Below, in pieces: positions 1 to 23,077 of a stretch of DNA of 23,077 nucleotides. Numbering within the stretch: the first letter of the stretch is position 1; each line of letters begins with the position of its first letter. Position numbers and translations under genes: made by a program. Source of the DNA: Utricularia gibba. Its lineage: Eukaryota; Streptophyta; Magnoliopsida; Lamiales; Lentibulariaceae. Location of the stretch: assembly GCA_002189035.1 (NCBI GenBank), contig NEEC01000491.1:1-23077 (forward strand). Direction: 5' to 3'. The notes beneath the pieces were generated by a model. The model was not told the origin of the DNA. It saw only the letters and a program-made list of their open reading frames with translations, and searched no databases.

Positions 1-3000
1 AGAGCTTGTTCAGAGATCGCCTCGAAAACCCATACTTCACGTCACCAATAAAACGCACATGTTTGCAACCGAAATCACAATCGGTCGATTCTCGTTTTCC
101 GAGTCGCATCGTCGCGAACGTGGTGGCCAATTTGTGGCACATCTGAAGGCTAAGATAAGGCGATAATTCGAGCTTTGATGCATCCTCGGACGAAGAAGCT
201 TTCAACACGGAAGCTGACCGGCACGGAAAGGGGTTCGAAACGGTATGCCGGGCGCAGCATGACTCATCACGGTTTTCAGGATATGGCCGAAATACCGAAC
301 GGTGTGCGAGGCCACCATGAGGCTGCAGTAGGACACACCCAGAGCTTGTTCAGAGATCGCCTCGAAAACCATACTTCACGTCACCAATAAAACGCAGATG
401 TTTTGCAAGCCGAAAATCACAATCGGTCGATTCTCGTGTTCCGAGTCGCATCGTCGCGAACGTGGTGGCCAATTTGTGGCACATCTGAAGGCTAAGATAA
501 GGCGATAATTCGAGCTTGATGCATCTCGGACGAAGAAGCTTTCAACACGGAAGCTGACCGGCACGGAAAGGGGTTCGAAACGGTATGCCGGGCGCAGCAT
601 GACTCATCACGGTTTCAGGATATGGCCGAAATACCGAACGGTGTGCGAGGCACCATGAGGCTGCAGGTAGGGACACACCCAGAGCTTGTTCAGAGATCGC
701 CTCGAAAACCCATACTTCACGTCATCCAATAAAACGCAGATGTTTTGCAAACCGAAAATCACAATCGCGTCGATTCTCGTGTTCCGAGTCGCATCGTCGC
801 GAACGTGGTGGCCAATTTGTGGCACATCTGAAGGCTAAGATAAGGCGATAATTCGAGCTTTGATGCATCCTCGGACGAAGAAGCTTTCAACACGGAAGCT
901 GACCGGCACGGAAAGGGGTTCGAAACGGTATGCGGCGCAGCATGACTCATCACGGTTTTCAGGATATGGCCGAAATACCGAACGGTGTGCGAGGCCACCA
1001 TGAGGCTGCGGGTAGGGACACACCCAGAGCTTGTTCAGAGATCGCCTCGAAAACCCATACTTCACGTCACCAATAAAACGCAGATGTTTGGAAACCGAAA
1101 ATCACAATCGCGTCGATTCTCGTTTTCCGAGTCGCATCGTCGCGAACGTGGTGGCCAATTTGTGGCACATCTGAAGGCTAAGATAAGGCGATAATTCGAG
1201 CTCTGATGCATCCTCGGACGAAGAAGCTTTCAACACGGAAGCTGACCGGCACGGAAAGGGGTTCGAAACGGTATGCCGGGCGCAGCTGACTCATCACGGT
1301 TTTCAGGATATGGCCGAAATACGAACGGTGTGCGAGGCCACCATGAGGCTGCACGTAGGGACACACCCAGAGCTTGTTCAGAGATCGCCTCGAAAACCCA
1401 TACTTCACGTCATCCAATAAAACGCAGATGTTTTGCAAGGCGAAAATCACAATCGCGTCGATTCTCGTGTTCCGAGTCGCATCGTCGCGAACGTGGTGGC
1501 CAATTTGTGGCACATCTAAAGGCTAAGATAAGGCGATAATTCGAGCTTTGATGCATCCTCGGACGAAGAAGCTTTCAACACGGAAGCTGACCGGCACGGA
1601 AAGGGGTTCGAAACGGTATGCCGGGCGCAGCATGACTCATCACGGTTTTCAGGATATGGCCGAAATACCGAACGGTGTGCGAGGCCACCATGAGGCTGCG
1701 GTAGGAACACACCAGAGCTTGTTCAGAGATCGCCTCGAAAACCCATACTTCACGTCACCCAATAAAACGCAGATGTTTTGCAAGCGAAAATCACAATCGC
1801 GTCGATTCTCGTTTTCCGAGTCGCATCGTCGCGAACGTGGTGGCCAATTTGTGGCACATCTGAAGGCTAAGATAAGGCGATAATTCGAGCTTTGATGCAT
1901 CCTCGGACGAAGAAGCTTTCAACACGGAAGCTGACCGGCACGGAAAGGGGTTCGAAACGGTATGCCGGGCGCAGCATGACTCATCACGGTTTTCAGGATA
2001 TGGCCGAAATACCGAACGGTGTGCGAGGCCACCATGAGGCTGCGGGTAGGACACACCAGAGCTTGTTCAGAGATCGCCTCGAAAACCCATACTTCACGTC
2101 ACCAATAAAACGCAGATGTTTGCAAGCCGAAAATCACAATCGGGTCGATTCTCGTTTTCCGAGTCGCATCGTCGCGAACGTGGTGGCCAATTTGTGGCAC
2201 ATCTGAAGGCTAAGATAAGGCGATAATTCGAGCTTGATGCATCCTCGGACGAAGAAGCTTTCAACACGGAAGCTGACCGGCACGGAAAGGGGTTCGAAAC
2301 GGTATGCCGGGCGCAGCTGACTCATCACGGTTTCAGGATATGGCCGAAATACCGAACGGTGTGCGAGGCCACCATGAGGCTGCGGTAGGGACACACCCAG
2401 AGCTTGTTCAGAGATCGCCTCGAAAACCCATACTTCACGTCATCCAATAAAACGCAGATGTTTTGCAACCGAAAATCACAATCGGGTCGATTCTCGTTTC
2501 CGAGTCGCATCGTCGCGAACGTGGTGGCCAATTTGTGGCACATCTGAAGGCTAAGATAAGGCGATAATTCGAGCTTTGATGCATCCTCGGACGAAGAAGC
2601 TTTCAACACGGAAGCTGACCGGCACGGAAAGGGGTTCGAAACGGTATGCCGGGCGCAGCATGACTCATCACGGTTTTCAGGATATGGCCGAAATACCGAA
2701 CGGTGTGCGAGGCCACCATGAGGCTGCGGGTAGGGACACACCAGAGCTTGTTCAGAGATCGCCTCGAAAACCCATACTTCACATCACCCAATAAAACGCA
2801 GATGTTTGCAAACCCGAAAATCACAATCGGGTCGATTCTCGTTTTCCGAGTCGCATCGTCGCGAACGTGGTGGCCAATTTGTGGCACATCTGAAGGCTAA
2901 GATAAGGCGATAATTCGAGCTTGATGCATCCTCGGACGAAGAAGCTTTCAACACGGAAGCTGACCGGCACGGAAAGGGGTTCGAAACGGTATGCCGGGCG

Positions 3001-4852
3001 CAGCATGACTCATCACGGTTTTCAGGATATGGCCGAAATACCGAACGGTGTGCGAGGCCACCATGAGGCTGCACGTAGGGACACACCCCAGAGCTTGTTC
3101 AGAGATCGCCTCGAAAACCCATACTTCACGTCATCCAATAAAACGCAGATGTTTTGCAAGGCGAAAATCACAATCGCGTCGATTCTCGTGTTCCGAGTCG
3201 CATCGTCGCGAACGTGGTGGCAAATTTGTGGCACATCTAAAGGCTAAGATAAGGCGATAATTCGAGCTTTGATGCATCCTCGGACGAAGAAGCTTTCAAC
3301 ACGGAAGCTGACCGGCACGGAAAGGGGTTCGAAACGGTATGCCGGGCGCAGCATGACTCATCACGGTTTTCAGGATATGGCCGAAATACCGAACGGTGTG
3401 CGAGGCCACCATGAGGCTGCGGTAGGGACACACCCAGAGCTTGTTCAGAGATCGCCTCGAAAACCCATACTTCACGTCACCAAATAAAACGCAGATGTTT
3501 TGCAAGCCGAAAATCACAATCGGGTCGATTCTCGTTTCCGAGTCGCATCGTCGCGAACGTGGTGGCCAATTTGTGGCACATCTGAAGGCTAAGATAAGGC
3601 GATAATTCGAGCTTTGATGCATCCTCGGACGAAGAAGCTTTCAACACGGAAGCTGACCGGCACGGAAAGGGGTTCGAAACGGTATGCCGGGCGCAGCATG
3701 ACTCATCACGGTTTTCAGGATATGGCCGAAATACCGAACGGTGTGCGAGGCCACCATGAGGCTGCGGTAGGACACACCCAGAGCTTGTTCAGAGATCGCC
3801 TCGAAAACCCATACTTCACGTCACCAAAAACGCAGATGTTTGCAACCCGAAAATCACAATCGGTCGATTCTCGTTTTCCGAGTCGCATCGTCGCGAACGT
3901 GGTGGCCAATTTGTGGCACATCTGAAGGCTAAGATAAGGCGATAATTCGAGCTTTGATGCATCCTCGGACGAAGAAGCTTTCAACACGGAAGCTGACCGG
4001 CACGGAAAGGGGTTCGAAACGGTATGCCGGGCGCAGCATGACTCATCACGGTTTTCAGGATATGGCCGAAATACCGAACGGTGTGCGAGGCCACCATGAG
4101 GCTGCGGTAGGGACACACCCAGAGCTTGTTCAGAGATCGCCTCGAAAACCCATACTTCACGTCATCCAATAAAACGCAGATGTTTTGCAACCGAAAATCA
4201 CAATCGGGTCGATTCTCGTTTTCCGAGTCGCATCGTCGCGAACGTGGTGGCCAATTTGTGGCACATCTGAAGGCTAAGATAAGGCGATAATTCGAGCTTT
4301 GATGCATCCTCGGACGAAGAAGCTTTCAACACGGAAGCTGACCGGCACGGAAAGGGGTTCGAAACGGTATGCCGGGCGCAGCATGACTCATCACGGTTTT
4401 CAGGATATGGCCGAAATACCGAACGGTGTGCGAGGCCACCATGAGGCTGCGGGTAGGAACACAAGAGCTTGTTCAGAGATCGCCTCGAAAACCATACTTC
4501 ACGTCACCAATAAAACGCAGATGTTTTGCAAACCGAAAATCACAATCGGGTCGATTCTCGTTTTCCGAGTCGCATCGTCGCGAACGTGGTGGCCAATTTG
4601 TGGCACATCTGAAGGCTAAGATAAGGCGATAATTCGAGCTTGATGCTCTCGGACGAAGAAGCTTTCAACACGGAAGCTGACCGGCACGGAAAGGGGTTCG
4701 AAACGGTATGCCGGGCGCAGCATGACTCATCACGGTTTTCAGGATATGGCCGAAATACCGAACGGTGTGCGAGGCCACCATGAGGCTGCACGTAGGGACA
4801 CACCCAGAGCTTGTTCAGAGATCGCCTCGAAAACCCATACTTCACGTCATCC

Positions 4853-4858
4853 AATAAA
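4853..4858 (+). other. AATAAA hexamer (example; nearly every monomer)
   Basis: The word AATAAA, identical to the animal polyadenylation signal, occurs on the plus strand near position 49 of almost every copy and is followed within about 10 bases by the T-rich word gatgttttg. A few copies break it (M12 reads caccaaaaacg). If the array is transcribed left to right it could define unit-length RNA ends. A six-base AT-rich word is easily present by chance. Confidence 0.2.
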
Positions 4859-5068
4859 ACGCAGATGTTTTGCAAGGCGAAAATCACAATCGCGTCGATT
4901 CTCGTGTTCCGAGTCGCATCGTCGCGAACGTGGTGGCCAATTTGTGGCACATCTGAAGGCTAAGATAAGGCGATAATTCGAGCTTTGATGCATCCTCGGA
5001 CGAAGAAGCTTTCAACACGGAAGCTGACCGGCACGGAAAGGGGTTCGAAACGGTATGCCGGGCGCAGC

Positions 5069-5077
5069 ATGACTCAT
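5069..5077 (+). promoter_or_regulatory. ATGACTCAT word, AP-1/GCN4-type bZIP motif (example; one per monomer)
   Basis: The reference monomer holds the 9-base word ATGACTCAT, which matches the classical binding site of AP-1/GCN4-family bZIP proteins. The seven-base core TGACTCA is present in every complete copy I checked except M32. The base just before it varies (A, T or none), so only part of the copies have the full 9-base site. Binding in vivo is inference; the sequence shows only the motif and its retention. Confidence 0.3.
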
Positions 5078-5495
5078 CACGGTTTTCAGGATATGGCCGA
5101 AATACCGAACGGTGTGCGAGGCCACCATGAGGCTGCGGTAGGGACACACCCAGAGCTTGTTCAGAGATCGCCTCGAAAACCCATACTTCACGTCACCCAA
5201 TAAAACGCAGATGTTTTGCAAGCCGAAAATCACAATCGCGTCGATTCTCGTTTCCGAGTCGCATCGTCGCGAACGTGGTGGCCAATTTGTGGCACATCTG
5301 AAGGCTAAGATAAGGCGATAATTCGAGCTTTGATGCATCCTCGGACGAAGAAGCTTTCAACACGGAAGCTGACCGGCACGGAAAGGGGTTCGAAACGGTA
5401 TGCGGGCGCAGCATGACTCATCACGGTTTTCAGGATATGGCCGAAATACCGAACGGTGTGCGAGGCCACCATGAGGCTGCGGGTAGGGACACACC

Positions 5496-5831
5496 AGAGC
5501 TTGTTCAGAGATCGCCTCGAAAACCCATACTTCACGTCACCAATAAACGCAGATGTTTGCAAAGAAAATCACAATCGCGTCGATTCTCGTGTTCCGAGTC
5601 GCATCGTCGCGAACGTGGTGGCCAATTTGTGGCACATCTGAAGGCTAAGATAAGGCGATAATTCGAGCTTTGATGCATCGGACGAAGAAGCTTTCAACAC
5701 GGAAGCTGACCGGCACGGAAAGGGGTTCGAAACGGTATGCGGGCGCAGCATGACTCATCACGGTTTTCAGGATATGGCCGAAATACCGAACGGTGTGCGA
5801 GGCCACCATGAGGCTGCGGTAGGGACACACC
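5496..5831. repeat. Shortened monomer M17 (336 bp)
   Basis: This copy is about 10 bp short. Visible losses are one A in ataaacgc, one T in tgtttgcaa, the bases normally found between gcaa and gaaaatc (here gcaaagaaaatc), and a 3-bp loss giving gcatcggacg near 5675-5684. The losses are scattered and not one deletion, which suggests either local sequence-quality loss or a long-isolated copy. Confidence 0.7.
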
Positions 5832-6520
5832 AGAGCTTGTTCAGAGATCGCCTCGAAAACCCATACTTCACGTCATCCAATAAAACGCAGATGTTTTGCA
5901 AGCGAAAATCACAATCGCGTCGATTCTCGTTTTCCGAGTCGCATCGTCGCGAACGTGGTGGCCAATTTGTGGCACATCTGAAGGCTAAGATAAGGCGATA
6001 ATTCGAGCTTTGATGCATCCTCGGACGAAGAAGCTTTCAACACGGAAGCTGACCGGCACGGAAAGGGGTTCGAAACGGTATGCCGGGCGCAGCATGACTC
6101 ATCACGGTTTTCAGGATATGGCCGAAATACCGAACGGTGTGCGAGGCCACCATGAGGCTGCGGTAGGGACACACCCAGAGCTTGTTCAGAGATCGCCTCG
6201 AAAACCCATACTTCACGTCACCAATAAAACGCAGATGTTTTGCAAGCCGAAAATCACAATCGGTCGATTCTCGTTTCCGAGTCGCATCGTCGCGAACGTG
6301 GTGGCCAATTTGTGGCACATCTGAAGGCTAAGATAAGGCGATAATTCGAGCTTTGATGCATCCTCGGACGAAGAAGCTTTCAACACGGAAGCTGACCGGC
6401 ACGGAAAGGGGTTCGAAACGGTATGCCGGGCGCAGCATGACTCATCACGGTTTTCAGGATATGGCCGAAATACCGAACGGTGTGCGAGGCCACCATGAGG
6501 CTGCGGGTAGGGACACACCC

Positions 6521-6867
6521 AGAGCTTGTTCAGAGATCGCCTCGAAAACCCATACTTCACGTCACCAATAAAACGCAGATGTTTTGCAACCCGAAAATCA
6601 CAATCGCGTCGATTCTCGTTTTCCGAGTCGCATCGTCGCGAACGTGGTGGCCAATTTGTGGCACATCTGAAGGCTAAGATAAGGCGATAATTCGAGCTTT
6701 GATGCATCCTCGGACGAAGAAGCTTTCAACACGGAAGCTGACCGGCACGGAAAGGGGTTCGAAACGGTATGCCGGGCGCAGCTTGACTCATCACGGTTTT
6801 TCAGGATATGGCCGAAATACCGAACGGTGTGCGAGGCCACCATGAGGCTGCAGGTAGGGACACACCC
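6521..6867. repeat. Junction monomer between the two higher-order periods (M20)
   Basis: This 347-bp copy does not fit the five-monomer pattern to its left, where a T-type monomer was expected; it has caccaat instead. It carries the first gcagcttgac variant in the window (others have gcagcatgac), an expanded ggtttttcagg, and ends with ctgcaggtaggg. Directly after it the four-monomer pattern begins. It is the most likely place where an unequal exchange joined two array segments with different organisation, although the breakpoint cannot be placed more finely than about M19-M21. Confidence 0.45.
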
Positions 6868-9800
6868 AGAGCTTGTTCAGAGATCGCCTCGAAAACCCAT
6901 ACTTCACGTCATCCAATAAAACGCAGATGTTTTGCAAGGCGAAAATCACAATCGCGTCGATTCTCGTGTTCCGAGTCGCATCGTCGCGAACGTGGTGGCC
7001 AATTTGTGGCACATCTGAAGGCTAAGATAAGGCGATAATTCGAGCTTTGATGCATCCTCGGACGAAGAAGCTTTCAACACGGAAGCTGACCGGCACGGAA
7101 AGGGGTTCGAAACGGTATGCCGGCGCAGCATGACTCATCACGGTTTTCAGGATATGGCCGAAATACCGAACGGTGTGCGAGGCCACCATGAGGCTGCAGT
7201 AGGGACACACCCAGAGCTTGTTCAGAGATCGCCTCGAAAACCCATACTTCACGTCATCCAATAAAACGCAGATGTTTTGCAAGGCGAAAATCACAATCGC
7301 GTCGATTCTCGTTTCCGAGTCGCATCGTCGCGAACGTGGTGGCCAATTTGTGGCACATCTGAAGGCTAAGATAAGGCGATAATTCGAGCTTTGATGCATC
7401 CTCGGACGAAGAAGCTTTCAACACGGAAGCTGACCGGCACGGAAAGGGGTTCGAAACGGTATGGGCGCAGCATGACTCATCACGGTTTTCAGGATATGGC
7501 CGAAATACCGAACGGTGTGCGAGGCCACCATGAGGCTGCGGTAGGGACACACCCAGAGCTTGTTCAGAGATCGCCTCGAAAACCCATACTTCACGTCACC
7601 AATAAAACGCAGATGTTTTGCAAGCCGAAAATCACAATCGGGTCGATTCTCGTTTTCCGAGTCGCATCGTCGCGAACGTGGTGGCCAATTTGTGGCACAT
7701 CTGAAGGCTAAGATAAGGCGATAATTCGAGCTTTGATGCATCCTCGGACGAAGAAGCTTTCAACACGGAAGCTGACCGGCACGGAAAGGGGTTCGAAACG
7801 GTATGCCGGGCGCAGCATGACTCATCACGGTTTTCAGGATATGGCCGAAATACCGAACGGTGTGCGAGGCCACCATGAGGCTGCGGGTAGGAACACACCA
7901 GAGCTTGTTCAGAGATCGCCTCGAAAACCCATACTTCACGTCACCCAATAAAACGCAGATGTTTTGCAAGCCGAAAATCACAATCGGGTCGATTCTCGTT
8001 TTCCGAGTCGCATCGTCGCGAACGTGGTGGCCAATTTGTGGCACATCTGAAGGCTAAGATAAGGCGATAATTCGAGCTTTGATGCATCCTCGGACGAAGA
8101 AGCTTTCAACACGGAAGCTGACCGGCACGGAAAGGGGTTCGAAACGGTATGCCGGGCGCAGCATGACTCATCACGGTTTTCAGGATATGGCCGAAATACC
8201 GAACGGTGTGCGAGGCCACCATGAGGCTGCAGTAGGGACACACCCAGAGCTTGTTCAGAGATCGCCTCGAAAACCCATACTTCACGTCATCCAATAAAAC
8301 GCAGATGTTTGCAAGGCGAAAATCACAATCGGTCGATTCTCGTTTCCGAGTCGCATCGTCGCGAACGTGGTGGCCAATTTGTGGCACATCTGAAGGCTAA
8401 GATAAGGCGATAATTCGAGCTTTGATGCATCCTCGGACGAAGAAGCTTTCAACACGGAAGCTGACCGGCACGGAAAGGGGTTCGAAACGGTATGCCGGGC
8501 GCAGCATGACTCATCACGGTTTTCAGGATATGGCCGAAATACCGAACGGTGTGCGAGGCCACCATGAGGCTGCACGTAGGGACACACCCAGAGCTTGTTC
8601 AGAGATCGCCTCGAAAACCCATACTTCACGTCATCCAATAAAACGCAGATGTTTTGCAAAGGCGAAAATCACAATCGGTCGATTCTCGTTCCGAGTCGCA
8701 TCGTCGCGAACGTGGTGGCCAATTTGTGGCACATCTGAAGGCTAAGATAAGGCGATAATTCGAGCTTTGATGCATCCTCGGACGAAGAAGCTTTCAACAC
8801 GGAAGCTGACCGGCACGGAAAGGGGTTCGAAACGGTATGCCGGGCGCATGACTCATCACGGTTTTCAGGATATGGCCGAAATACCGAACGGTGTGCGAGG
8901 CCACCATGAGGCTGCGGTAGGGACACACCCAGAGCTTGTTCAGAGATCGCCTCGAAAACCCATACTTCACGTCACCCAATAAAAACGCAGATGTTTTGCA
9001 AGCGAAAATCACAATCGCGTCGATTCTCGTGTTCCGAGTCGCATCGTCGCGAACGTGGTGGCCAATTTGTGGCACATCTAAAGGCTAAGATAAGGCGATA
9101 ATTCGAGCTTTGATGCATCCTCGGACGAAGAAGCTTTCAACACGGAAGCTGACCGGCACGGAAAGGGGTTCGAAACGGTATGCCGGGCGCAGCATGACTC
9201 ATCACGGTTTTCAGGATATGGCCGAAATACCGAACGGTGTGCGAGGCCACCATGAGGCTGCGGGTAGGGACACACCCAGAGCTTGTTCAGAGATCGCCTC
9301 GAAAACCCATACTTCACGTCACCAATAAAACGCACATGTTTGCAAGGCGAAAATCACAATCGCGTCGATTCTCGTTTTCCGAGTCGCATCGTCGCGAACG
9401 TGGTGGCCAATTTGTGGCACATCTGAAGGCTAAGATAAGGCGATAATTCGAGCTTTGATGCATCCTCGGACGAAGAAGCTTTCAACACGGAAGCTGACCG
9501 GCACGGAAAGGGGTTCGAAACGGTATGCCGGGCGCAGCATGACTCATCACGGTTTTCAGGATATGGCCGAAATACCGAACGGTGTGCGAGGCCACCATGA
9601 GGCTGCGGTAGGGACACACCCAGAGCTTGTTCAGAGATCGCCTCGAAAACCCATACTTCACGTCATCCAATAAAACGCAGATGTTTTGCAAGGCGAAAAT
9701 CACAATCGGTCGATTCTCGTGTTCCGAGTCGCATCGTCGCGAACGTGGTGGCCAATTTGTGGCACATCTGAAGGCTAAGATAAGGCGATAATTCGAGCTT

Positions 9801-10887
9801 TGATGCATCCTCGGACGAAGAAGCTTTCAACACGGAAGCTGACCGGCACGGAAAGGGGTTCGAAACGGTATGCCGGGCGCAGCATGACTCATCACGGTTT
9901 TCAGGATATGGCCGAAATACCGAACGGTGTGCGAGGCCACCATGAGGCTGCAGTAGGGACACACCCAGAGCTTGTTCAGAGATCGCCTCGAAAACCCATA
10001 CTTCACGTCATCCAATAAAACGCAGATGTTTTGCAAGGCGAAAATCACAATCGCGTCGATTCTCGTGTTCCGAGTCGCATCGTCGCGAACGTGGTGGCCA
10101 ATTTGTGGCACATCTGAAGGCTAAGATAAGGCGATAATTCGAGCTTTGATGCATCCTCGGACGAAGAAGCTTTCAACACGGAAGCTGACCGGCACGGAAA
10201 GGGGTTCGAAACGGTATGCCGGGCGCAGCATGACTCATCACGGTTTTCAGGATATGGCCGAAATACCGAACGGTGTGCGAGGCCACCATGAGGCTGCGGT
10301 AGGAACACCCAGAGCTTGTTCAGAGATCGCCTCGAAAACCCATACTTCACGTCACCAATAAAACGCAGATGTTTTGCAAGCGAAAATCACAATCGCGTCG
10401 ATTCTCGTGTTCCGAGTCGCATCGTCGCGAACGTGGTGGCCAATTTGTGGCACATCTGAAGGCTAAGATAAGGCGATAATTCGAGCTTTGATGCATCCTC
10501 GGACGAAGAAGCTTTCAACACGGAAGCTGACCGGCACGGAAAGGGGTTCGAAACGGTATGCCGGGCGCAGCATGACTCATCACGGTTTTCAGGATATGGC
10601 CGAAATACCGAACGGTGTGCGAGGCCACCATGAGCTGGCGGGTAGGACACACCCAGAGCTTGTTCAGAGATCGCCTCGAAAACCCATACTTCACGTCACC
10701 AATAAAACGCAGATGTTTTGCAAGGCGAAAATCACAATCGGGTCGATTCTCGTTTTCCGAGTCGCATCGTCGCGAACGTGGTGGCCAATTTGTGGCACAT
10801 CTGAAGGCTAAGATAAGGCGATAATTCGAGCTTTGATGCATCCTCGGACGAAGAAGCTTTCAACACGGAAGCTGACCGGCACGGAAA

Positions 10888-10937
10888 GGGGGTTCGAAAC
10901 GGTATGCCGGGCGCAGCATGACATCACACGGTTTCAG
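10888..10937. repeat. Local scrambled patch in monomer M32
   Basis: Within about 50 bases this copy has an extra G (ggggg instead of gggg), the segment gacatcacacgg where others have gactcatcacgg, and three instead of four T before cagg. It is the only copy in which the otherwise constant core TGACTCA is lost. Clustered changes of both signs look like a gene-conversion scar or a local assembly error. Confidence 0.6.
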
Positions 10938-10999
10938 GATATGGCCGAAATACCGAACGGTGTGCGAGGCCACCATGAGGCTGCAGTAGGGACACACCC

Positions 11000-11686
11000 A
11001 GAGCTTGTTCAGAGATCGCCTCGAAAACCCATACTTCACGTCATCCAATAAAACGCAGATGTTTTGCAAGGCGAAAATCACAATCGGTCGATTCTCGTGT
11101 TCCGAGTCGCATCGTCGCGAACGTGGTGGCCAATTTGTGGCACATCTGAAGGCTAAGATAAGGCGATAATTCGAGCTTTGATGCATCCTCGGACGAAAGC
11201 TTTCAACACGGAAGCTGACCGGCACGGAAAGGGGTTCGAAACGGTATGCCGGGCGCAGCTTGACTCATCACGGTTTTCAGGATATGGCCGAAATACCGAA
11301 CGGTGTGCGAGGCCACCATGAGGCTGCAGTAGGGACACACCCAGAGCTTGTTCAGAGATCGCCTCGAAAACCCATACTTCACGTCATCCAATAAAACGCA
11401 GATGTTTTGCAAGGCGAAAATCACAATCGCGTCGATTCTCGTGTTCCGAGTCGCATCGTCGCGAACGTGGTGGCCAATTTGTGGCACATCTGAAGGCTAA
11501 GATAAGGCGATAATTCGAGCTTTGATGCATCCTCGGACGAAAGCTTTCAACACGGAAGCTGACCGGCACGGAAAGGGGTTCGAAACGGTATGCCGGGCGC
11601 AGCATGACTCATCACGGTTTTCAGGATATGGCCGAAATACCGAACGGTGTGCGAGGCCACCATGAGGCTGCAGTAGGGACACACCC
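11000..11686. repeat. Adjacent monomer pair sharing a private 2-bp deletion (M33-M34)
   Basis: Both neighbouring copies read ggacgaaagc (at 11191-11200 and 11535-11544) where nearly all others read ggacgaagaagc. The change keeps the HindIII word aagctt. Two adjacent copies sharing a rare variant is what a recent one-monomer duplication or local conversion would leave. The two copies still differ at other columns (cggtcg against cgcgtcg, gcagcttgac against gcagcatgac), so they are not identical duplicates. Confidence 0.6.
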
Positions 11687-14600
11687 AGAGCTTGTTCAGA
11701 GATCGCCTCGAAAACCCATACTTCACGTCACCAATAAAACGCAGATGTTTTGCAAGGAAAAATCACAATCGGGTCGATTCTCGTTTTCCGAGTCGCATCG
11801 TCGCGAACGTGGTGGCCAATTTGTGGCACATCTGAAGGCTAAGATAAGGCGATAATTCGAGCTTTGATGCATCCTCGGACGAAGAAGCTTTCAACACGGA
11901 AGCTGACCGGCACGGAAAGGGGTTCGAAACGGTATGCCGGGCGCAGCATGACTCATCACGGTTTTCAGGATATGGCCGAAATACCGAACGGTGTGCGAGG
12001 CCACCATGAGGCTGCGGGTAGGACACACCCAGAGCTTGTTCAGAGATCGCCTCGAAAACCCATACTTCACGTCACCCAATAAAACGCAGATGTTTTGCAA
12101 ACCCGAAAATCACAATCGGGTCGATTCTCGTTTCCGAGTCGCATCGTCGCGAACGTGGTGGCCAATTTGTGGCACATCTGAAGGCTAAGATAAGGCGATA
12201 ATTCGAGCTTGATGCATCCTCGGACGAAGAAGCTTTCAACACGGAAGCTGACCGGCACGGAAAGGGGTTCGAAACGGTATGCCGGGCAGCATGACTCATC
12301 ACGGTTTTCAGGATATGGCCGAAATACCGAACGGTGTGCGAGGCCACCATGAGGCTGCAGTAGGGACACACCCAGAGCTTGTTCAGAGATCGCCTCGAAA
12401 ACCCATACTTCACGTCATCCAATAAAACGCAGATGTTTTGCAAGGCGAAAATCACAATCGTCGATTCTCGTGTTCCGAGTCGCATCGTCGCGAACGTGGT
12501 GGCCAATTTGTGGCACATCTAAGGCTAAGATAAGGCGATAATTCGAGCTTTGATGCATCCTCGGACGAAGAAGCTTTCAACACGGAAGCTGACCGGCACG
12601 GAAAGGGGTTCGAAACGGTATGCCGGGCGCAGCATGACTCATCACGGTTTTCAGGATATGGCCGAAATACCGAACGGTGTGCGAGGCCACCATGAGGCTG
12701 CGGTAGGGACACACCCAGAGCTTGTTCAGAGATCGCCTCGAAAACCCATACTTCACGTCACCAATAAAACGCAGATGTTTTGCAACCCGAAAATCACAAT
12801 CGCGTCGATTCTCGTTTTCCGAGTCGCATCGTCGCGAACGTGGTGGCCAATTTGTGGCACATCTGAAGGCTAAGATAAGGCGATAATTCGAGCTTTGATG
12901 CATCCTCGGACGAAGAAGCTTTCAACACGGAAGCTGACCGGCACGGAAAGGGGTTCGAAACGGTATGCCGGCGCAGCTTGACTCATCACGGTTTTCAGGA
13001 TATGGCCGAAATACCGAACGGTGTGCGAGGCCACCATGAGGCTGCGGTAGGGACACACCCAGAGCTTGTTCAGAGATCGCCTCGAAAACCCATACTTCAC
13101 GTCATCCAATAAAACGCAGATGTTTTGCAAGCCGAAAATCACAATCGGTCGATTCTCGTGTTCCGAGTCGCATCGTCGCGAACGTGGTGGCCAATTTGTG
13201 GCACATCTGAAGGCTAAGATAAGGCGATAATTCGAGCTTTGATGCATCCTCGGACGAAGAAGCTTTCAACACGGAAGCTGACCGGCACGGAAAGGGGTTC
13301 GAAACGGTATGCCGGGCGCAGCATGACTCATCACGGTTTTCAGGATATGGCCGAAATACCGAACGGTGTGCGAGGCCACCATGAGGCTGCAGTAGGGACA
13401 CACCAGAGCTTGTTCAGAGATCGCCTCGAAAACCCATACTTCACGTCATCCAATAAAACGCAGATGTTTTGCAAGGCGAAAATCACAATCGGGTCGATTC
13501 TCGTGTTCCGAGTCGCATCGTCGCGAACGTGGTGGCCAATTTGTGGCACATCTGAAGGCTAAGATAAGGCGATAATTCGAGCTTTGATGCATCCTCGGAC
13601 GAAGAAGCTTTCAACACGGAAGCTGACCGGCACGGAAAGGGGTTCGAAACGGTATGCCGGGCGCAGCATGACTCATCACGGTTTTCAGGATATGGCCGAA
13701 ATACCGAACGGTGTGCGAGGCCACCATGAGGCTGCGGGTAGGGACACACCCAGAGCTTGTTCAGAGATCGCCTCGAAAACCCATACTTCACGTCACCCAA
13801 TAAAACGCAGATGTTTTGCAAGGCGAAAATCACAATCGCGTCGATTCTCGTTTTCCGAGTCGCATCGTCGCGAACGTGGTGGCCAATTTGTGGCACATCT
13901 GAAGGCTAAGATAAGGCGATAATTCGAGCTCTGATGCTCTCGGACGAAGCTTTCAACACGGAAGCTGACCGGCACGGAAAGGGGTTCGAAACGGTATGCC
14001 GGGCGCAGCATGACTCATCACGGTTTTCAGGATATGGCCGAAATACCGAACGGTGTGCGAGGCCACCATGAGGCTGCAGTAGGGACACACCCAGAGCTTG
14101 TTCAGAGATCGCCTCGAAAACCCATACTTCACGTCATCCAATAAAACGCAGATGTTTTGCAAGCGAAAATCACAATCGCGTCGATTCTCGTGTTCCGAGT
14201 CGCATCGTCGCGAACGTGGTGGCCAATTTGTGGCACATCTGAAGGCTAAGATAAGGCGATAATTCGAGCTTTGATGCATCCTCGGACGAAGAAGCTTTCA
14301 ACACGGAAGCTGACCGGCACGGAAAGGGGTTCGAAACGGTATGCCGGGCGCAGCTGACTCATCACGGTTTTCAGGATATGGCCGAAATACCGAACGGTGT
14401 GCGAGGCCACCATGAGGCTGCAGGTAGGGACACACCCAGAGCTTGTTCAGAGATCGCCTCGAAAACCCATACTTCACGTCATCCAATAAAACGCAGATGT
14501 TTGCAAACCGAAAATCACAATCGGGTCGATTCTCGTTTTCCGAGTCGCATCGTCGCGAACGTGGTGGCCAATTTGTGGCACATCTGAAGGCTAAGATAAG

Positions 14601-14781
14601 GCGATAATTCGAGCTTTGATGCATCCTCGGACGAAGAAGCTTTCAACACGGAAGCTGACCGGCACGGAAAGGGGTTCGAAACGGTATGCCGGGCGCAGCA
14701 TGACTCATCACGGTTTTCAGGATATGGCCGAAATACCGAACGGTGTGCGAGGCCACCATGAGGCTGCAGTAGGGACACACC

Positions 14782-15119
14782 AGAGCTTGTTCAGAGATCG
14801 CCTCGAAAACCCATACTTCACGTCACCAATAAACTGTTTTGCAAGCGAAAATCACAATCGCGTCGATTCTCGTGTTCCGAGTCGCATCGTCGCGAACGTG
14901 GTGGCCAATTTGTGGCACATCTGAAGGCTAAGATAAGGCGATAATTCGAGCTTTGATGCATCCTCGGACGAAGAAGCTTTCAACACGGAAGCTGACCGGC
15001 ACGGAAAGGGGTTCGAAACGGTATGCCGGGCGCAGCTTGACTCATCACGGTTTTCAGGATATGGCCGAAATACCGAACGGTGTGCGAGGCCACCATGAGG
15101 CTGCAGTAGGGACACACCC
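14782..15119. repeat. Monomer M44 with a ~6-bp deletion (338 bp)
   Basis: The stretch normally reading aataaaacgcagatgtttt is here aataaactgtttt (about 14828-14840), one of the larger single deletions in the array. The rest of the copy is ordinary apart from caccaat and gcagcttgac. Confidence 0.7.
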
Positions 15120-18100
15120 AGAGCTTGTTCAGAGATCGCCTCGAAAACCCATACTTCACGTCATCCAATAAAACGCAGATGTTTTGCAAGGCGAAAATCA
15201 CAATCGCGTCGATTCTCGTGTTCCGAGTCGCATCGTCGCGAACGTGGTGGCCAATTTGTGGCACATCTGAAGGCTAAGATAAGGCGATAATTCGAGCTTT
15301 GATGCATCCTCGGACGAAGAAGCTTTCAACACGGAAGCTGACCGGCACGGAAAGGGGTTCGAAACGGTATGCCGGGCGCAGCATGACTCATCACGGTTTT
15401 CAGGATATGGCCGAAATACCGAACGGTGTGCGAGGCCACCATGAGGCTGCGGGTAGGAACACACCAGAGCTTGTTCAGAGATCGCCTCGAAAACCCATAC
15501 TTCACGTCATCCCAATAAAACGCAGATGTTTTGCAAGCGAAAATCACAATCGCGTCGATTCTCGTGTTCCGAGTCGCATCGTCGCGAACGTGGTGGCCAA
15601 TTTGTGGCACATCTGAAGGCTAAGATAAGGCGATAATTCGAGCTTTGATGCATCCTCGGACGAAGAAGCTTTCAACACGGAAGCTGACCGGCACGGAAAG
15701 GGGTTCGAACGGTATGCCGGGCAGCATGACTCATCACGGTTTTCAGGATATGGCCGAAATACCGAACGGTGTGCGAGGCCACCATGAGGCTGCAGTAGGG
15801 ACACACCGAGCTTGTTCAGAGATCGCCTCGAAAACCCATACTTCACGTCATCCAATAAAACGCAGATGTTTTGCAAGGCGAAAATCACAATCGCGTCGAT
15901 TCTCGTGTTCCGAGTCGCATCGTCGCGAACGTGGTGGCCAATTTGTGGCACATAAAGGCTAAGATAAGGCGATAATTCGAGCTTTGATGCATCTCGGACG
16001 AAGAAGCTTTCAACACGGAAGCTGACCGGCACGGAAAGGGGTTCGAAACGGTATGCCGGGCGCAGCTTGACTCATCACGGTTTTCAGGATATGGCCGAAA
16101 TACCGAACGGTGTGCGAGGCCACCATGAGGCTGCAGTAGGGACACACCCAGAGCTTGTTCAGAGATCGCCTCGAAAACCCATACTTCACGTCATCCCAAT
16201 AAAACGCAGATGTTTTGCAAGGCGAAAATCACAATCGGGTCGATTCTCGTGTTCCGAGTCGCATCGTCGCGAACGTGGTGGCCAATTTGTGGCACATCTG
16301 AAGGCTAAGATAAGGCGATAATTCGAGCTTTGATGCATCCTCGGACGAAGAAGCTTTCAACACGGAAGCTGACCGGCACGGAAAGGGGTTCGAAACGGTA
16401 TGCCGGGCGCAGCTGACTCATCACGGTTTTCAGGATATGGCCGAAATACCGAACGGTGTGCGAGGCCACCATGAGGCTGCGGGTAGGGACACACCCAGAG
16501 CTTGTTCAGAGATCGCCTCGAAAACCCATACTTCACGTCACCCAATAAAACGCAGATGTTTTGCAACCGAAAATCACAATCGGGTCGATTCTCGTTTTCC
16601 GAGTCGCATCGTCGCGAACGTGGTGGCCAATTTGTGGCACATCTGAAGGCTAAGATAAGGCGATAATTCGAGCTTTGATGCATCCTCGGACGAAGAAGCT
16701 TTCAACACGGAAGCTGACCGGCACGGAAAGGGGTTCGAAACGGTATGCCGGGCGCAGCATGACTCATCACGGTTTTCAGGATATGGCCGAAATACCGAAC
16801 GGTGTGCGAGGCCACCATGAGGCTGCAGTAGGGACACACCCAGAGCTTGTTCAGAGATCGCCTCGAAAACCCATACTTCACGTCATCCAATAAAACGCAG
16901 ATGTTTTGCAAGGCGAAAATCACAATCGCGTCGATTCTCGTGTTCCGAGTCGCATCGTCGCGAACGTGGTGGCCAATTTGTGGCACATCTGAAGGCTAAG
17001 ATAAGGCGATAATTCGAGCTTTGATGCATCCTCGGACGAAGAAGCTTTCAACACGGAAGCTGACCGGCACGGAAAGGGGTTCGAAACGGTATGCCGGGCG
17101 CAGCTGACTCATCACGGTTTTCAGGATATGGCCGAAATACCGAACGGTGTGCGAGGCCACCATGAGGCTGCAGGTAGGGACACACCCAGAGCTTGTTCAG
17201 AGATCGCCTCGAAAACCCATACTTCACGTCATCCAATAAAACGCACATGTTTTGCAAGGCGAAAATCACAATCGGGTCGATTCTCGTGTTCCGAGTCGCA
17301 TCGTCGCGAACGTGGTGGCCAATTTGTGGCACATCTGAAGGCTAAGATAAGGCGATAATTCGAGCTTTGATGCATCTCGGACGAAGAAGCTTTCAACACG
17401 GAAGCTGACCGGCACGGAAAGGGGTTCGAAACGGTATGCCGGGCGCAGCATGACTCATCACGGTTTTCAGGATATGGCCGAAATACCGAACGGTGTGCGA
17501 GGCCACCATGAGGCTGCAGTAGGGACACACCAGAGCTTGTTCAGAGATCGCCTCGAAAACCCATACTTCACGTCACCCAATAAAACGCAGATGTTTTGCA
17601 AGCCGAAAATCACAATCGGTCGATTCTCGTGTTCCGAGTCGCATCGTCGCGAACGTGGTGGCCAATTTGTGGCACATCTGAAGGCTAAGATAAGGCGATA
17701 ATTCGAGCTTTGATGCATCCTCGGACGAAGAAGCTTTCAACACGGAAGCTGACCGGCACGGAAAGGGGTTCGAAACGGTATGCCGGGCGCAGCATGACTC
17801 ATCACGGTTTCAGGATATGGCCGAAATACCGAACGGTGTGCGAGGCCACATGAGGCTGCAGTAGGACACACCCAGAGCTTGTTCAGAGATCGCCTCGAAA
17901 ACCCATACTTCACGTCATCCAATAAAACGCAGATGTTTTGCAAAAAATCACAATCGCGTCGATTCTCGTTTTCCGAGTCGCATCGTCGCGAACGTGGTGG
18001 CCAATTTGTGGCACATCTGAAGGCTAAGATAAGGCGATAATTCGAGCTTTGATGCATCCTCGGACGAAGAAGCTTTCAACACGGAAGCTGACCGGCACGG

Positions 18101-19586
18101 AAAGGGGTTCGAAACGGTATGCCGGGCGCAGCTGACTCATCACGGTTTTCAGGATATGGCCGAAATACCGAACGGTGTGCGAGGCCACCATGAGGCTGCA
18201 CGTAGGGACACACCCAGAGCTTGTTCAGAGATCGCCTCGAAAACCCATACTTCACGTCATCCAATAAAACGCAGATGTTTTGCAAGGCGAAAATCACAAT
18301 CGCGTCGATTCTCGTGTTCCGAGTCGCATCGTCGCGAACGTGGTGGCCAATTTGTGGCACATCTGAAGGCTAAGATAAGGCGATAATTCGAGCTTTGATG
18401 CATCTCGGACGAAGAAGCTTTCAACACGGAAGCTGACCGGCACGGAAAGGGGTTCGAAACGGTATGCCGGGCGCAGCTGACTCATCACGGTTTCAGGATA
18501 TGGCGAAATACCGAACGGTGTGCGAGGCCACCATGAGGCTGCAGGTAGGGACACACCCAGAGCTTGTTCAGAGATCGCCTCGAAAACCCATACTTCACGT
18601 CATCCAATAAAACGCAGATGTTTTGAAGCGAAAATCACAATCGCGTCGATTCTCGTTTTCCGAGTCGCATCGTCGCGAACGTGGTGGCCAATTTGTGGCA
18701 CATCTGAAGGCTAAGATAAGGCGATAATTCGAGCTTTGATGCATCCTCGGACGAAGAAGCTTTCAACACGGAAGCTGACCGGCACGGAAAGGGGTTCGAA
18801 ACGGTATGCCGGGCGCAGCATGACTCATCACGGTTTTCAGGATATGGCCGAAATACCGAACGGTGTGCGAGGCCACCATGAGGCTGCACGTAGGACACAC
18901 CCAGAGCTTGTTCAGAGATCGCCTCGAAAACCCATACTTCACGTCATCCAATAAAACGCAGATGTTTTGCAAGGCGAAAATCACAATCGCGTCGATTCTC
19001 GTGTTCCGAGTCGCATCGTCGCGAACGTGGTGGCCAATTTGTGGCACATCTGAAGGCTAAGATAAGGCGATAATTCGAGCTTTGATGCATCCTCGGACGA
19101 AGAAGCTTTCAACACGGAAGCTGACCGGCACGGAAAGGGGTTCGAAACGGTATGCCGGGCGCAGCTGACTCATCACGGTTTTCAGGATATGGCCGAAATA
19201 CCGAACGGTGTGCGAGGCCACCAGGCTGCGGGTAGGAACACACCCAGAGCTTGTTCAGAGATCGCCTCGAAAACCCATACTTCACGTCACCAATAAAACG
19301 CACATGTTTTGCAACCGAAATCACAATCGGTCGATTCTCGTTTCCGAGTCGCATCGTCGCGAACGTGGTGGCCAATTTGTGGCACATCTGAAGGCTAAGA
19401 TAAGGCGATAATTCGAGCTCTGATGCATCCTCGGACGAAGAAGCTTTCAACACGGAAGCTGACCGGCACGGAAAGGGGTTCGAAACGGTATGCCGGGCGC
19501 AGCTTGACTCATCACGGTTTTCAGGATATGGCCGAAATACCGAACGGTGTGCGAGGCCACCATGAGGCTGCAGTAGGGACACACCC

Positions 19587-20261
19587 AGAGCTTGTTCAGA
19601 GATCGCCTCGAAAACCCATACTTCACGTCATCCAATAAAACGCAGATGTTTTGCAAGGCGAAAATCACAATCGGTCGATTCTCGTGTTCCGAGTCGCATC
19701 GTCGCGAACGTGGTGGCCAATTTGTGGCACATTGAAGGCTAAGATAAGGCGATAATTCGAGCTTTGATGCATCCTCGGACGAAGAAGCTTTCAACACGGA
19801 AGACCGGCACGGAAAGGGGTTCGAAACGGTATGCCGGGCGCAGCTTGACTCATCACGGTTTTCAGGATATGGCCGAAATACCGAACGGTGTGCGAGGCCA
19901 CCATGAGGCTGCGTAGGGACACACCCAGAGCTTGTTCAGAGATCGCCTCGAAAACCCATACGTCATCCAATAAAACGCAGATGTTTTGCAAGGCAAAATC
20001 ACAATCGGTCGATTCTCGTTTCCGAGTCGCATCGTCGCGAACGTGGTGGCCAATTTGTGGCACATCTGAAGGCTAAGATAAGGCGATAATTCGAGCTTGA
20101 TGCATCCTCGGACGAAGAGCTTTCAACACGGAAGCTGACCGGCACGGAAAGGGGTTCGAAACGGTATGCCGGGCGCAGCATGACTCATCACGGTTTTCAG
20201 GATATGGCCGAAATACCGAACGGTGTGCGAGGCCACCATGAGGCTGCGGTAGGACACACCC
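19587..20261. repeat. Indel-rich monomer pair M58-M59 (340 and 335 bp)
   Basis: M58 has cacattgaagg (one C lost), ggaagaccgg (3 bp lost near 19801) and ctgcgtaggg. M59 is the shortest copy in the window: it has a 5-bp loss in cccatacgtcatcc (about 19955-19968), gcaaggcaaaatc, gagcttgatg, gaagagctttc (destroying the HindIII word) and taggacac. The concentration of losses in under 700 bp exceeds that of neighbouring copies. Confidence 0.65.
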
Positions 20262-23004
20262 AGAGCTTGTTCAGAGATCGCCTCGAAAACCCATACTTCA
20301 CGTCATCCAATAAAACGCAGATGTTTTGCAAGGCGAAAATCACAATCGCGTCGATTCTCGTGTTCCGAGTCGCATCGTCGCGAACGTGGTGGCCAATTTG
20401 TGCACATCTGAAGGCTAAGATAAGGCGATAATTCGAGCTTTGATGCATCCTCGGACGAAGAAGCTTTCAACACGGAAGCTGACCGGCACGGAAAGGGGTT
20501 CGAAACGGTATGCGGGCGCAGCGTGACTCATCACGGTTTCAGGATATGGCGAAATACCGAACGGTGTGCGAGGCCACCATGAGGCTGCACGTAGGGACAC
20601 ACCCAGAGCTTGTTCAGAGATCGCCTCGAAAACCCATACTTCACGTCATCCAATAAAACGCAGATGTTTGCAAGGCGAAAATCACAATCGCGTCGATTCT
20701 CGTGTTCCGAGTCGCATCGTCGCGAACGTGGTGGCCAATTTGTGGCACATCTAAAGGCTAAGATAAGGCGATAATTCGAGCTTTGATGCATCCTCGGACG
20801 AAGAAGCTTTCAACACGGAAGCTGACCGGCACGGAAAGGGGTTCGAAACGGTATGCCGGGCGCAGCATGACTCATCACGGTTTTCAGGATATGGCCGAAA
20901 TACCGAACGGTGTGCGAGGCCACCATGAGGCTGCGGGTAGGACACACCCAGAGCTTGTTCAGAGATCGCCTCGAAAACCCATACTTCACGTCACCCAATA
21001 AACGCAGATGTTTTGCAAGCCGAAAATCACAATCGCGTCGATTCTCGTTTTCCGAGTCGCATCGTCGCGAACGTGGTGGCCAATTTGTGCACATCTGAAG
21101 GCTAAGATAAGGCGATAATTCGAGCTCTGATGCATCCTCGGACGAAGAAGCTTTCAACACGGAAGCTGACCGGCACGGAAAGGGGTTCGAAACGGTATGC
21201 CGGGCGCAGCTGACTCATCACGGTTTTCAGGATATGGCCGAAATACCGAACGGTGTGCGAGGCCACCATGAGGCTGCGGTAGGGACACACCCAGAGCTTG
21301 TTCAGAGATCGCCTCGAAAACCCATACTTCACGTCATCCAATAAAACGCAGATGTTTTGCAAGCGAAAATCACAATCGGTCGATTCTCGTGTTCCGAGTC
21401 GCATCGTCGCGAACGTGGTGGCCAATTTGTGGCACATCTGAAGGCTAAGATAAGGCGATAATTCGAGCTTTGATGCATCCTCGGACGAAGAAGCTTTCAA
21501 CACGGAAGCTGACCGGCACGGAAAGGGGTTCGAAACGGTATGCCGGGCGCAGCATGACTCATCACGGTTTTCAGGATATGGCCGAAATACCGAACGGTGT
21601 GCGAGGCCACCATGAGGCTGCAGTAGGACACACCCAGAGCTTGTTCAGAGATCGCCTCGAAAACCCATACTTCACGTCATCCAATAAAACGCAGATGTTT
21701 TGCAAGCGAAAATCACAATCGGGTCGATTCTCGTGTTCCGAGTCGCATCGTCGCGAACGTGGTGGCCAATTTGTGGCACATCTGAAGGCTAAGATAAGGC
21801 GATAATTCGAGCTTTGATGCATCCTCGGACGAAGAGCTTTCAACACGGAAGCTGACCGGCACGGAAAGGGGTTCGAAACGGTATGCCGGCGCAGCATGAC
21901 TCATCACGGTTTTCAGGATATGGCCGAAATACCGAACGGTGTGCGAGGCCACCATGAGGCTGCATAGGACACACCCAGAGCTTGTTCAGAGATCGCCTCG
22001 AAAACCCATACTTCACGTCATCCAATAAAACGCAGATGTTTTGCAAGGCGAAAATCACAATCGCGTCGATTCTCGTGTTCCGAGTCGCATCGTCGCGAAC
22101 GTGGTGGCCAATTTGTGGCACATCTAAGGCTAAGATAAGGCGATAATTCGAGCTTTGATGCATCCTCGGACGAAGAAGCTTTCAACACGGAAGCTGACCG
22201 GCACGGAAAGGGGTTCGAAACGGTATGCCGGGCGCAGCTTGACTCATCACGGTTTCAGGATATGGCCGAAATACCGAACGGTGTGCGAGGCCACCATGAG
22301 GCTGCGTAGGGACACACCAGAGCTTGTTCAGAGATCGCCTCGAAAACCCATACTTCACGTCACCAATAAAACACAGATGTTTTGCAAGGCGAAAATCACA
22401 ATCGCGTCGATTCTCGTTTCCGAGTCGCATCGTCGCGAACGTGGTGGCCAATTTGTGGCACATCTGAAGGCTAAGATAAGGCGATAATTCGAGCTTGATG
22501 CATCCTCGGACGAAGAAGCTTTCAACACGGAAGCTGACCGGCACGGAAAGGGTTCGAAACGGTATGCCCGGCGCAGCATGACTCATCACGGTTTTCAGGA
22601 TATGGCCGAAATACCGAACGGTGTGCGAGGCCACCATGAGGCTGCGGTAGGACACACCCAGAGCTTGTTCAGAGATCGCCTCGAAAACCCATACTTCACG
22701 TCATCCAATAAAACGCACATGTTTGCAAGGCGAAAATCACAATCGCGTCGATTCTCGTTTTCCGAGTCGCATCGTCGCGAACGTGGTGGCCAATTTGTGG
22801 CACATCTGAAGGCTAAGATAAGGCGATAATTCGAGCTTTGATGCATCCTCGGACGAAGAAGCTTTCAACACGGAAGCTGACCGGCACGGAAAGGGGTTCG
22901 AAACGGTATGCGGGGCGCAGCATGACTCATCACGGTTTTCAGGATATGGCCGAAATACCGAACGTGTGCGAGGCCACCATGAGGCTGCACGTAGGGACAC
23001 ACCC

Positions 23005-23077
23005 AGAGCTTGTTCAGAGATCGCCTCGAAAACCCATACTTCACGTCATCCAATAAAACGCAGATGTTTTGCAAGGC
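23005..23077. repeat. Partial final monomer (M68), truncated by the window edge
   Basis: The first 73 bases of a copy are present, with the T, aagg-type states at the first diagnostic columns. The sequence stops in the middle of the unit without any change of character, so the array continues to the right. Confidence 0.95.

What the first reader, a model, noticed from the sequence alone, without database searches (positions are those of the whole stretch)
1..12373. Higher-order period switches from five monomers to four within one array
Scoring the cgtca-N-ccaat column as T or not-T gives the order (T, other, other, T, other) for M1-M19 and (T, T, other, other) for M21-M36, with the change at M20 (6521-6867). 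The period goes from about 1.72 kb to 1.376 kb while orientation and monomer family stay the same. Such a boundary inside a satellite marks where two separately amplified segments meet, and it shows how higher-order repeats are born and replaced.
Basis: seen in the sequence. Interest (0 to 1): 0.7.

Follow-up and report, generated by a model that had tools for sequence, protein, structure and literature searches.

The report
Bladderwort satellite with shifting repeat periods
The window is part of a long plant satellite array of 345-base units, probably from the bladderwort Utricularia gibba, in which small blocks of units look copied together: a five-unit block is well supported, the neighbouring four-unit block only weakly.

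Summary
The window is 68 head-to-tail 345-bp monomers (67 complete). The organism is probably Utricularia gibba: 100.09 Mb in 516 contigs, with the Utricularia-type double cysteine in mitochondrial COX1. Without that column the five-monomer period holds (8 other sites, p=0.0004; scan-wide P=0.016, best window M1-M18 at lag 5), although one noisier alignment gives p=0.065. The four-monomer period does not hold in M21-M36 (p=0.16) and is weak in M18-M37 (p=0.019, range chosen afterwards). So the left half is a real but faint higher-order repeat, and the switch at M20 is half supported. Contig C32 of the same satellite shows such switching better: dimers, tetramers, hexamers within 46 kb (p=0.0008, 0.0004, 0.0008). 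A toy neutral model makes such patches. Monomer order rests on a noisy long-read assembly. The assembly holds at least 1790 monomer cores, about 0.6 Mb, in a species whose putative centromeres are said in print to lack satellites.

The parts
1..23077 (+). 345-bp satellite array, 67 complete monomers plus 73 bases of a 68th, all head to tail
   Evidence: TRF period 345, 67.2 copies, 97% matches; anchor segmentation
1..6520 (+). M1-M19: faint pentameric higher-order repeat (about 1.72 kb), clearest as M4-M8, M9-M13, M14-M18
   Evidence: lag 5 p=0.0004 on 8 sites without the discovery column; scan P=0.016; p=0.004; p=0.065 in a noisier alignment
6521..6867 (+). M20, the stated boundary; the lag-4 run of the column already begins at M18
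6868..12373 (+). M21-M36: tetrameric order TTnn in one column; weak elsewhere
   Evidence: lag 4 without the column p=0.16, 0.25, 0.13
12374..23004 (+). M37-M67: same monomer family, no accepted higher-order period

Best explanation
The window is a homogeneous stretch of a non-coding 345-bp satellite of a bladderwort. Monomers are kept alike by repeated duplication and deletion of small blocks of neighbours (unequal sister-chromatid exchange or an equivalent copying repair). A block of five was copied about three times on the left and left a faint pentamer; the part to its right was shaped by other events, one of which may have been a block of four; further right nothing regular is left. Shown: the satellite and its extent, the pentamer, local periods that differ between and within other arrays. 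Inferred: the exchange mechanism, the tetramer as an amplification, the correctness of the assembled order.
For: Pentamer at sites other than the discovery column. 10 of 50 overlapping 20-monomer windows in eight arrays have a best-lag p<=0.01, with lags 2, 3, 4, 5, 6, 7 and 8. C32 changes from dimers to tetramers to hexamers. Array edge on C244: degraded monomers next to unique DNA, regular ones inward, as expected where exchange does not reach (inference). Toy block duplication/deletion model: local period in 19 of 23 windows and a second, different one in 7 of 23 at mutation setting 0.02.
Against: The tetramer fails at other sites in M21-M36. At the five other settings of the toy model local periods came in 3 of 23, 14 of 25, 6 of 26, 5 of 25 and 1 of 22 windows, and a second period in 0, 1, 1, 0 and 0. 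A lag-12 excess is unexplained. The assembly is visibly bad in one array (C372). No exchange was observed.
Confidence: 0.65

Rival explanations
1. One reading: two distinct, separately amplified higher-order repeats, a pentamer and a tetramer, meet at M20.
For: The column is perfectly periodic on both sides (P=0.0044 for the lag-4 run). M18-M37 at lag 4 without the column p=0.019. Tetramers also occur in C32 and C244.
Against: M21-M36 at lag 4 without the column is not significant in three analyses (p=0.25, 0.16, 0.13). The runs overlap at M18-M19.
Confidence: 0.25
2. The order is an artefact: noisy reads of nearly identical monomers were assembled or polished into a mosaic, so boundary and periods are partly made by the assembler.
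For: 209 deletions against 31 insertions relative to the majority; C372:26000-31000 is garbled satellite with many words missing; no other examined array clearly repeats the window's monomer order.
Against: The pentamer unit (1.7 kb) is far shorter than the mean subread of 10,385 bases listed for U. gibba (PMC5793159 table passage); the variable sites recur across contigs; an assembler has no evident reason to make multi-site periodicity.
Confidence: 0.2
3. Chance: with few variable sites and free choice of column, lag and limits, periodic stretches appear in a random order of monomers.
For: About nine variable sites; limits chosen by eye; family-wise p of 0.044 for lag 5 and 0.17 for lag 4 in the first analysis, column included; p=0.065 for the pentamer without the column.
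Against: Scan-wide P=0.016 without the column, with its maximum at M1-M18, lag 5.
Confidence: 0.08

Closest known systems
Higher-order repeats of plant and animal satellites (Melters et al. 2013, PMC4053949; passages)
   Same: Several variant monomers form a larger unit repeated in tandem. The passages report clear cases in 76 of 171 species with Sanger data, plants included, and six-monomer and four-monomer units in switchgrass PacBio reads.
   Different: Here the contrast between unit and monomer identity is about 0.5% and patches hold a few units; switchgrass units included truncated monomers, which I did not see in the window.
[quoted passage not shown] passages)
   Same: Multi-monomer units, pentameric ones among them; different periods in different arrays.
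   Different: There monomers within a unit are about 70% alike and neighbouring units 97-100%; here monomers are about 98.5% alike at aligned bases and units barely more.
Smith's unequal-crossover model of satellite evolution (named in a PMC8122249 passage; details recalled)
   Same: Local, changing periods and degraded array edges are expected from random exchange without selection.
   Different: Exchange was not measured here.

Membership tests
Higher-order repeat, pentamer M1-M19 | Units more alike than monomers within a unit, at several independent sites | tested here: met
   0.9901 at lag 5 against 0.9848 shuffled; p=0.0004 without the discovery column, but p=0.065
Higher-order repeat, tetramer M21-M36 | Units more alike than monomers within a unit, at several independent sites | tested here: inconclusive
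   p=0.16-0.25 without the column, 0.13; one further site at p=0.051 (M21-M36) and 0.028 (M18-M37)
Alpha-satellite-like mature higher-order repeat | Strong contrast: units nearly identical, monomers clearly diverged | tested here: not met
   about 0.5% contrast in the window
Centromeric satellite | Bound by CENH3 | not testable with these tools
   needs ChIP
Centromeric satellite | Present on all chromosomes | tested here: inconclusive
   The capped, contig-ordered lists start at C32 (core) and C163 (edge type), so no exact core was listed for C1-C31, among them C3 with telomere repeats at about base 1 and at 5.347 Mb. Exact cores only; not all plant satellite centromeres use one repeat
5S rDNA array | Contains 5S rRNA (or another Rfam RNA) | tested here: not met
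   no match at E<=1 in window 1-2400, about seven monomers

The most novel reading that the evidence does not exclude
The satellite forms one large chromosome-specific block, perhaps the centromere of one chromosome, in a species whose putative centromeres were described as free of satellites; a young core with patchy periods is flanked by older subfamilies, so it catches a satellite centromere, or a satellite invading one, at an early stage.
Probability: 0.15. Interest if true: 0.7.

Novelty: new member of a known kind. Interest (0 to 1): 0.38.

Why it matters
How higher-order repeats start is mostly argued from mature arrays. This satellite shows faint patches of several periods (2, 4, 5, 6, 7) in neighbouring arrays and within one contig, the stage at which block duplication has begun and no unit has yet taken over. 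If the species is confirmed as U. gibba, it also qualifies the published remark that its putative centromeric regions lack satellite repeats (PMC8333044 passage), since at least about 0.6 Mb of one satellite is in the assembly, one array of it on a telomere-bearing 3.4-Mb contig.

Tried and rejected
5S rDNA was considered because of the 345-bp unit; Rfam gave nothing in window 1-2400. A protein-coding repeat was considered because 345 is divisible by 3; 50 ORFs of at least 100 aa lie on both strands and I did not pursue it. A dimeric origin of the monomer: self-comparison of the consensus gave, besides itself, only matches of 7-11 bases. A CENP-B-box-like motif (pattern recalled): no match within two substitutions. 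Microbial or viral origin: the 30-base core has no exact match in genome contigs or viral contigs. The tetramer as the pentamer minus one monomer fits the T/not-T column, but other sites do not follow. Shared monomer order between the window and the seven other arrays: five stay within their shuffles; C371 ties its shuffled maximum (z 2.3); C372 exceeds the maximum of its 20 shuffles (z 1.4), but its identity, 0.954, is below what random same-type stretches reach elsewhere, and shuffling breaks its few usable runs. I count this as no shared order. The 18S rRNA search failed twice. A DNA search with edge monomers found candidates that could not be scored. A pattern demanding one substituted base found 0.

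Full report
What the window is. TRF finds one array over the whole window, period 345, 67.2 copies, 97% matches. Cutting at a fixed anchor gives 68 monomers, 67 complete and 73 bases of the last, head to tail. Against the majority there are 206 substitutions, 31 insertions and 209 deletions; many of the recurrent deletions lie in homopolymers (by eye, not counted), which looks like residual long-read error. Mean identity at aligned bases, gaps ignored, is 0.985. The window is G000:C125:1-23077 of an assembly of 100,091,633 bases in 516 contigs. No Rfam match was found in window 1-2400.

Which organism. Next to an array on C244 lie ORFs with PMR5N and PC-Esterase domains, which I recall as the pair found in land-plant TBL proteins. 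The mitochondrial cox1 on C515 reads LLLLCCSALVEVG. PMC11688529 (passage) states that two contiguous cysteines in helix 3 of COX1 were found in all 21 Utricularia species analysed and in Genlisea hispidula. PMC6982007 (passage) gives the U. gibba genome as NEEC01000001-NEEC01000518, 518 records, close to 516. PMC5793159 (passages) lists U. gibba as a PacBio assembly by HGAP. I infer U. gibba; no direct comparison with a named record was possible.

The observation. Coordinates are exact and the column is periodic as stated: lag 5 without a break in M1-M19, lag 4 in M18-M37. Because that column was used to see the pattern, I tested the other sites after homopolymer compression, which removes length errors in runs. 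Lag 5 in M1-M19 without the column: p=0.004 on 10 columns, p=0.0004 on 8 sites after dropping two linked columns. A scan over all 18-monomer windows and lags 2-8 without the column picks M1-M18 at lag 5, P=0.016. Sites 74, 115 and 251 are each below 0.05 in M1-M19; sites 44, 52, 62, 198 and 250 are not. Lag 4 in M21-M36 without the column: p=0.25, 0.16; M18-M37 p=0.019, a range chosen after seeing the column. Results against: an alignment ignoring gaps gives p=0.065 for the pentamer without the column; the first uncompressed analysis, column included, gave family-wise p of 0.044 for lag 5 and 0.17 for lag 4; lag 12 is also raised (p=0.008 in M1-M19 and 0.004 over the window). M37-M67 has no accepted period.

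Other arrays. The exact 25-base core has 1416 matches and the mutually exclusive edge-type core 374 in the assembly: at least 1790 monomers, about 0.6 Mb. Arrays were seen on ten contigs, C32, C82, C102, C122, C125, C143, C163, C244, C371 and C372; if these were satellite throughout (with 115 kb for the end of C244) they would hold about 535 kb (lengths), so further satellite contigs must exist beyond the capped lists. I read about 290 kb of them. Eight arrays with 624 monomer slots were analysed; 579 of usable length were aligned and 45 dropped. In the sliding scan, all sites included, 10 of 50 overlapping windows had p<=0.01 for their best lag: five on C32 (lags 4, 2, 8, 4, 6), two on C371 (7, 3), one each on C82 (2), C244 (4) and C125 (5). 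C32 shows the switch much better than the window: lag 2 at C32:37618-49833 (p=0.0008), lag 4 at 15336-22230 (0.967 against 0.923, p=0.0004), lag 6 at 4330-13267 (0.9525 against 0.9326, p=0.0008) (limits set after the scan; between them the pattern is weaker). The window's own best diagonal is M5-M12 against M10-M17, lag 5. The seven other arrays do not clearly repeat its order (details under tried and rejected).

Where it lies. C244 begins with telomere repeats. About 7.6 kb read before the array hold gene sequence. From about 3,290,635 there is satellite, and all seven further stretches read between 3,293,001 and the end at 3,405,668 (49 kb in all) are 98-100% satellite. The first monomers next to unique DNA are strongly degraded and become regular inward. 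Subfamilies differ: the two C163 stretches lie about 10% from the window type; C32 and C244 monomers differ by 17 and 12 substitutions on average from the window consensus; on C371 two markers change state near base 14657, although most monomers sampled beyond still lie nearest the window consensus. No exact core was listed on C1-C31 (capped list in contig order). So the satellite is probably not on every chromosome; whether it is centromeric, pericentromeric or an arm-end block is open. PMC8333044 (passage) speaks of an absence of satellite repeats in putative centromeric regions of U. gibba, citing its reference 15, Lan et al. 2017. That paper is not held, so I cannot say whether this satellite is described there. 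My searches (listings; passages of PMC8333044, PMC10663240 and PMC6982007) showed no description.

Mechanism. The simplest account is random duplication and deletion of small blocks by unequal exchange, with mutation slow enough that copies stay recognisable. A toy model with nine two-state sites gave a local period above all of 20 shuffles in 19 of 23 windows at mutation setting 0.02, with a second, different period in 7 of 23; five other settings gave 3 of 23, 14 of 25, 6 of 26, 5 of 25 and 1 of 22, with a second period in 0, 1, 1, 0 and 0. This shows sufficiency in part of the range, not proof. The pentamer is shown; the tetramer is suggested; the mechanism is inferred; the order needs reads.

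Verdict. It is a new example of a known process, of moderate interest, chiefly because of the species.

Noticed in passing
L019:7635-9999 (C244:3290635 on): Edge of a satellite array: strongly degraded monomers next to unique DNA, becoming regular inward; gene sequence within a few kilobases.
   Followed up: partly
C32:4330-49833: Higher-order period changes from dimers to tetramers to hexamers within one contig, a clearer case than the window.
   Followed up: yes
L001 (C372:25000-32500): Satellite consensus with many words missing; 66% covered by the monomer. Looks like failed long-read consensus.
   Followed up: partly
C163 (93,520 bases), L036 and L037: A further subfamily about 10% from the window type, with the GGCCACTTTGTGG core.
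   Followed up: partly
L016-L017 (C371), near C371:14657: Two markers change state along one contig, a possible subfamily boundary.
   Followed up: partly
C213:3237076, C409:1464362, C505:2133606, C244:121055, C1:5683662: Five short cox1-like matches on large contigs, all with stops and all covering about the same part of COX1 (profile 136-220); perhaps repeated mitochondrial insertions.
   Followed up: no
L024 (C515): cox1 with contiguous cysteines; its open frame runs on into an intron-like reading frame before the second cox1 part.
   Followed up: partly
L034:1-600 (C244:1-600): Telomere array with interspersed variant units such as CCCTGAA and CCCGAA.
   Followed up: no
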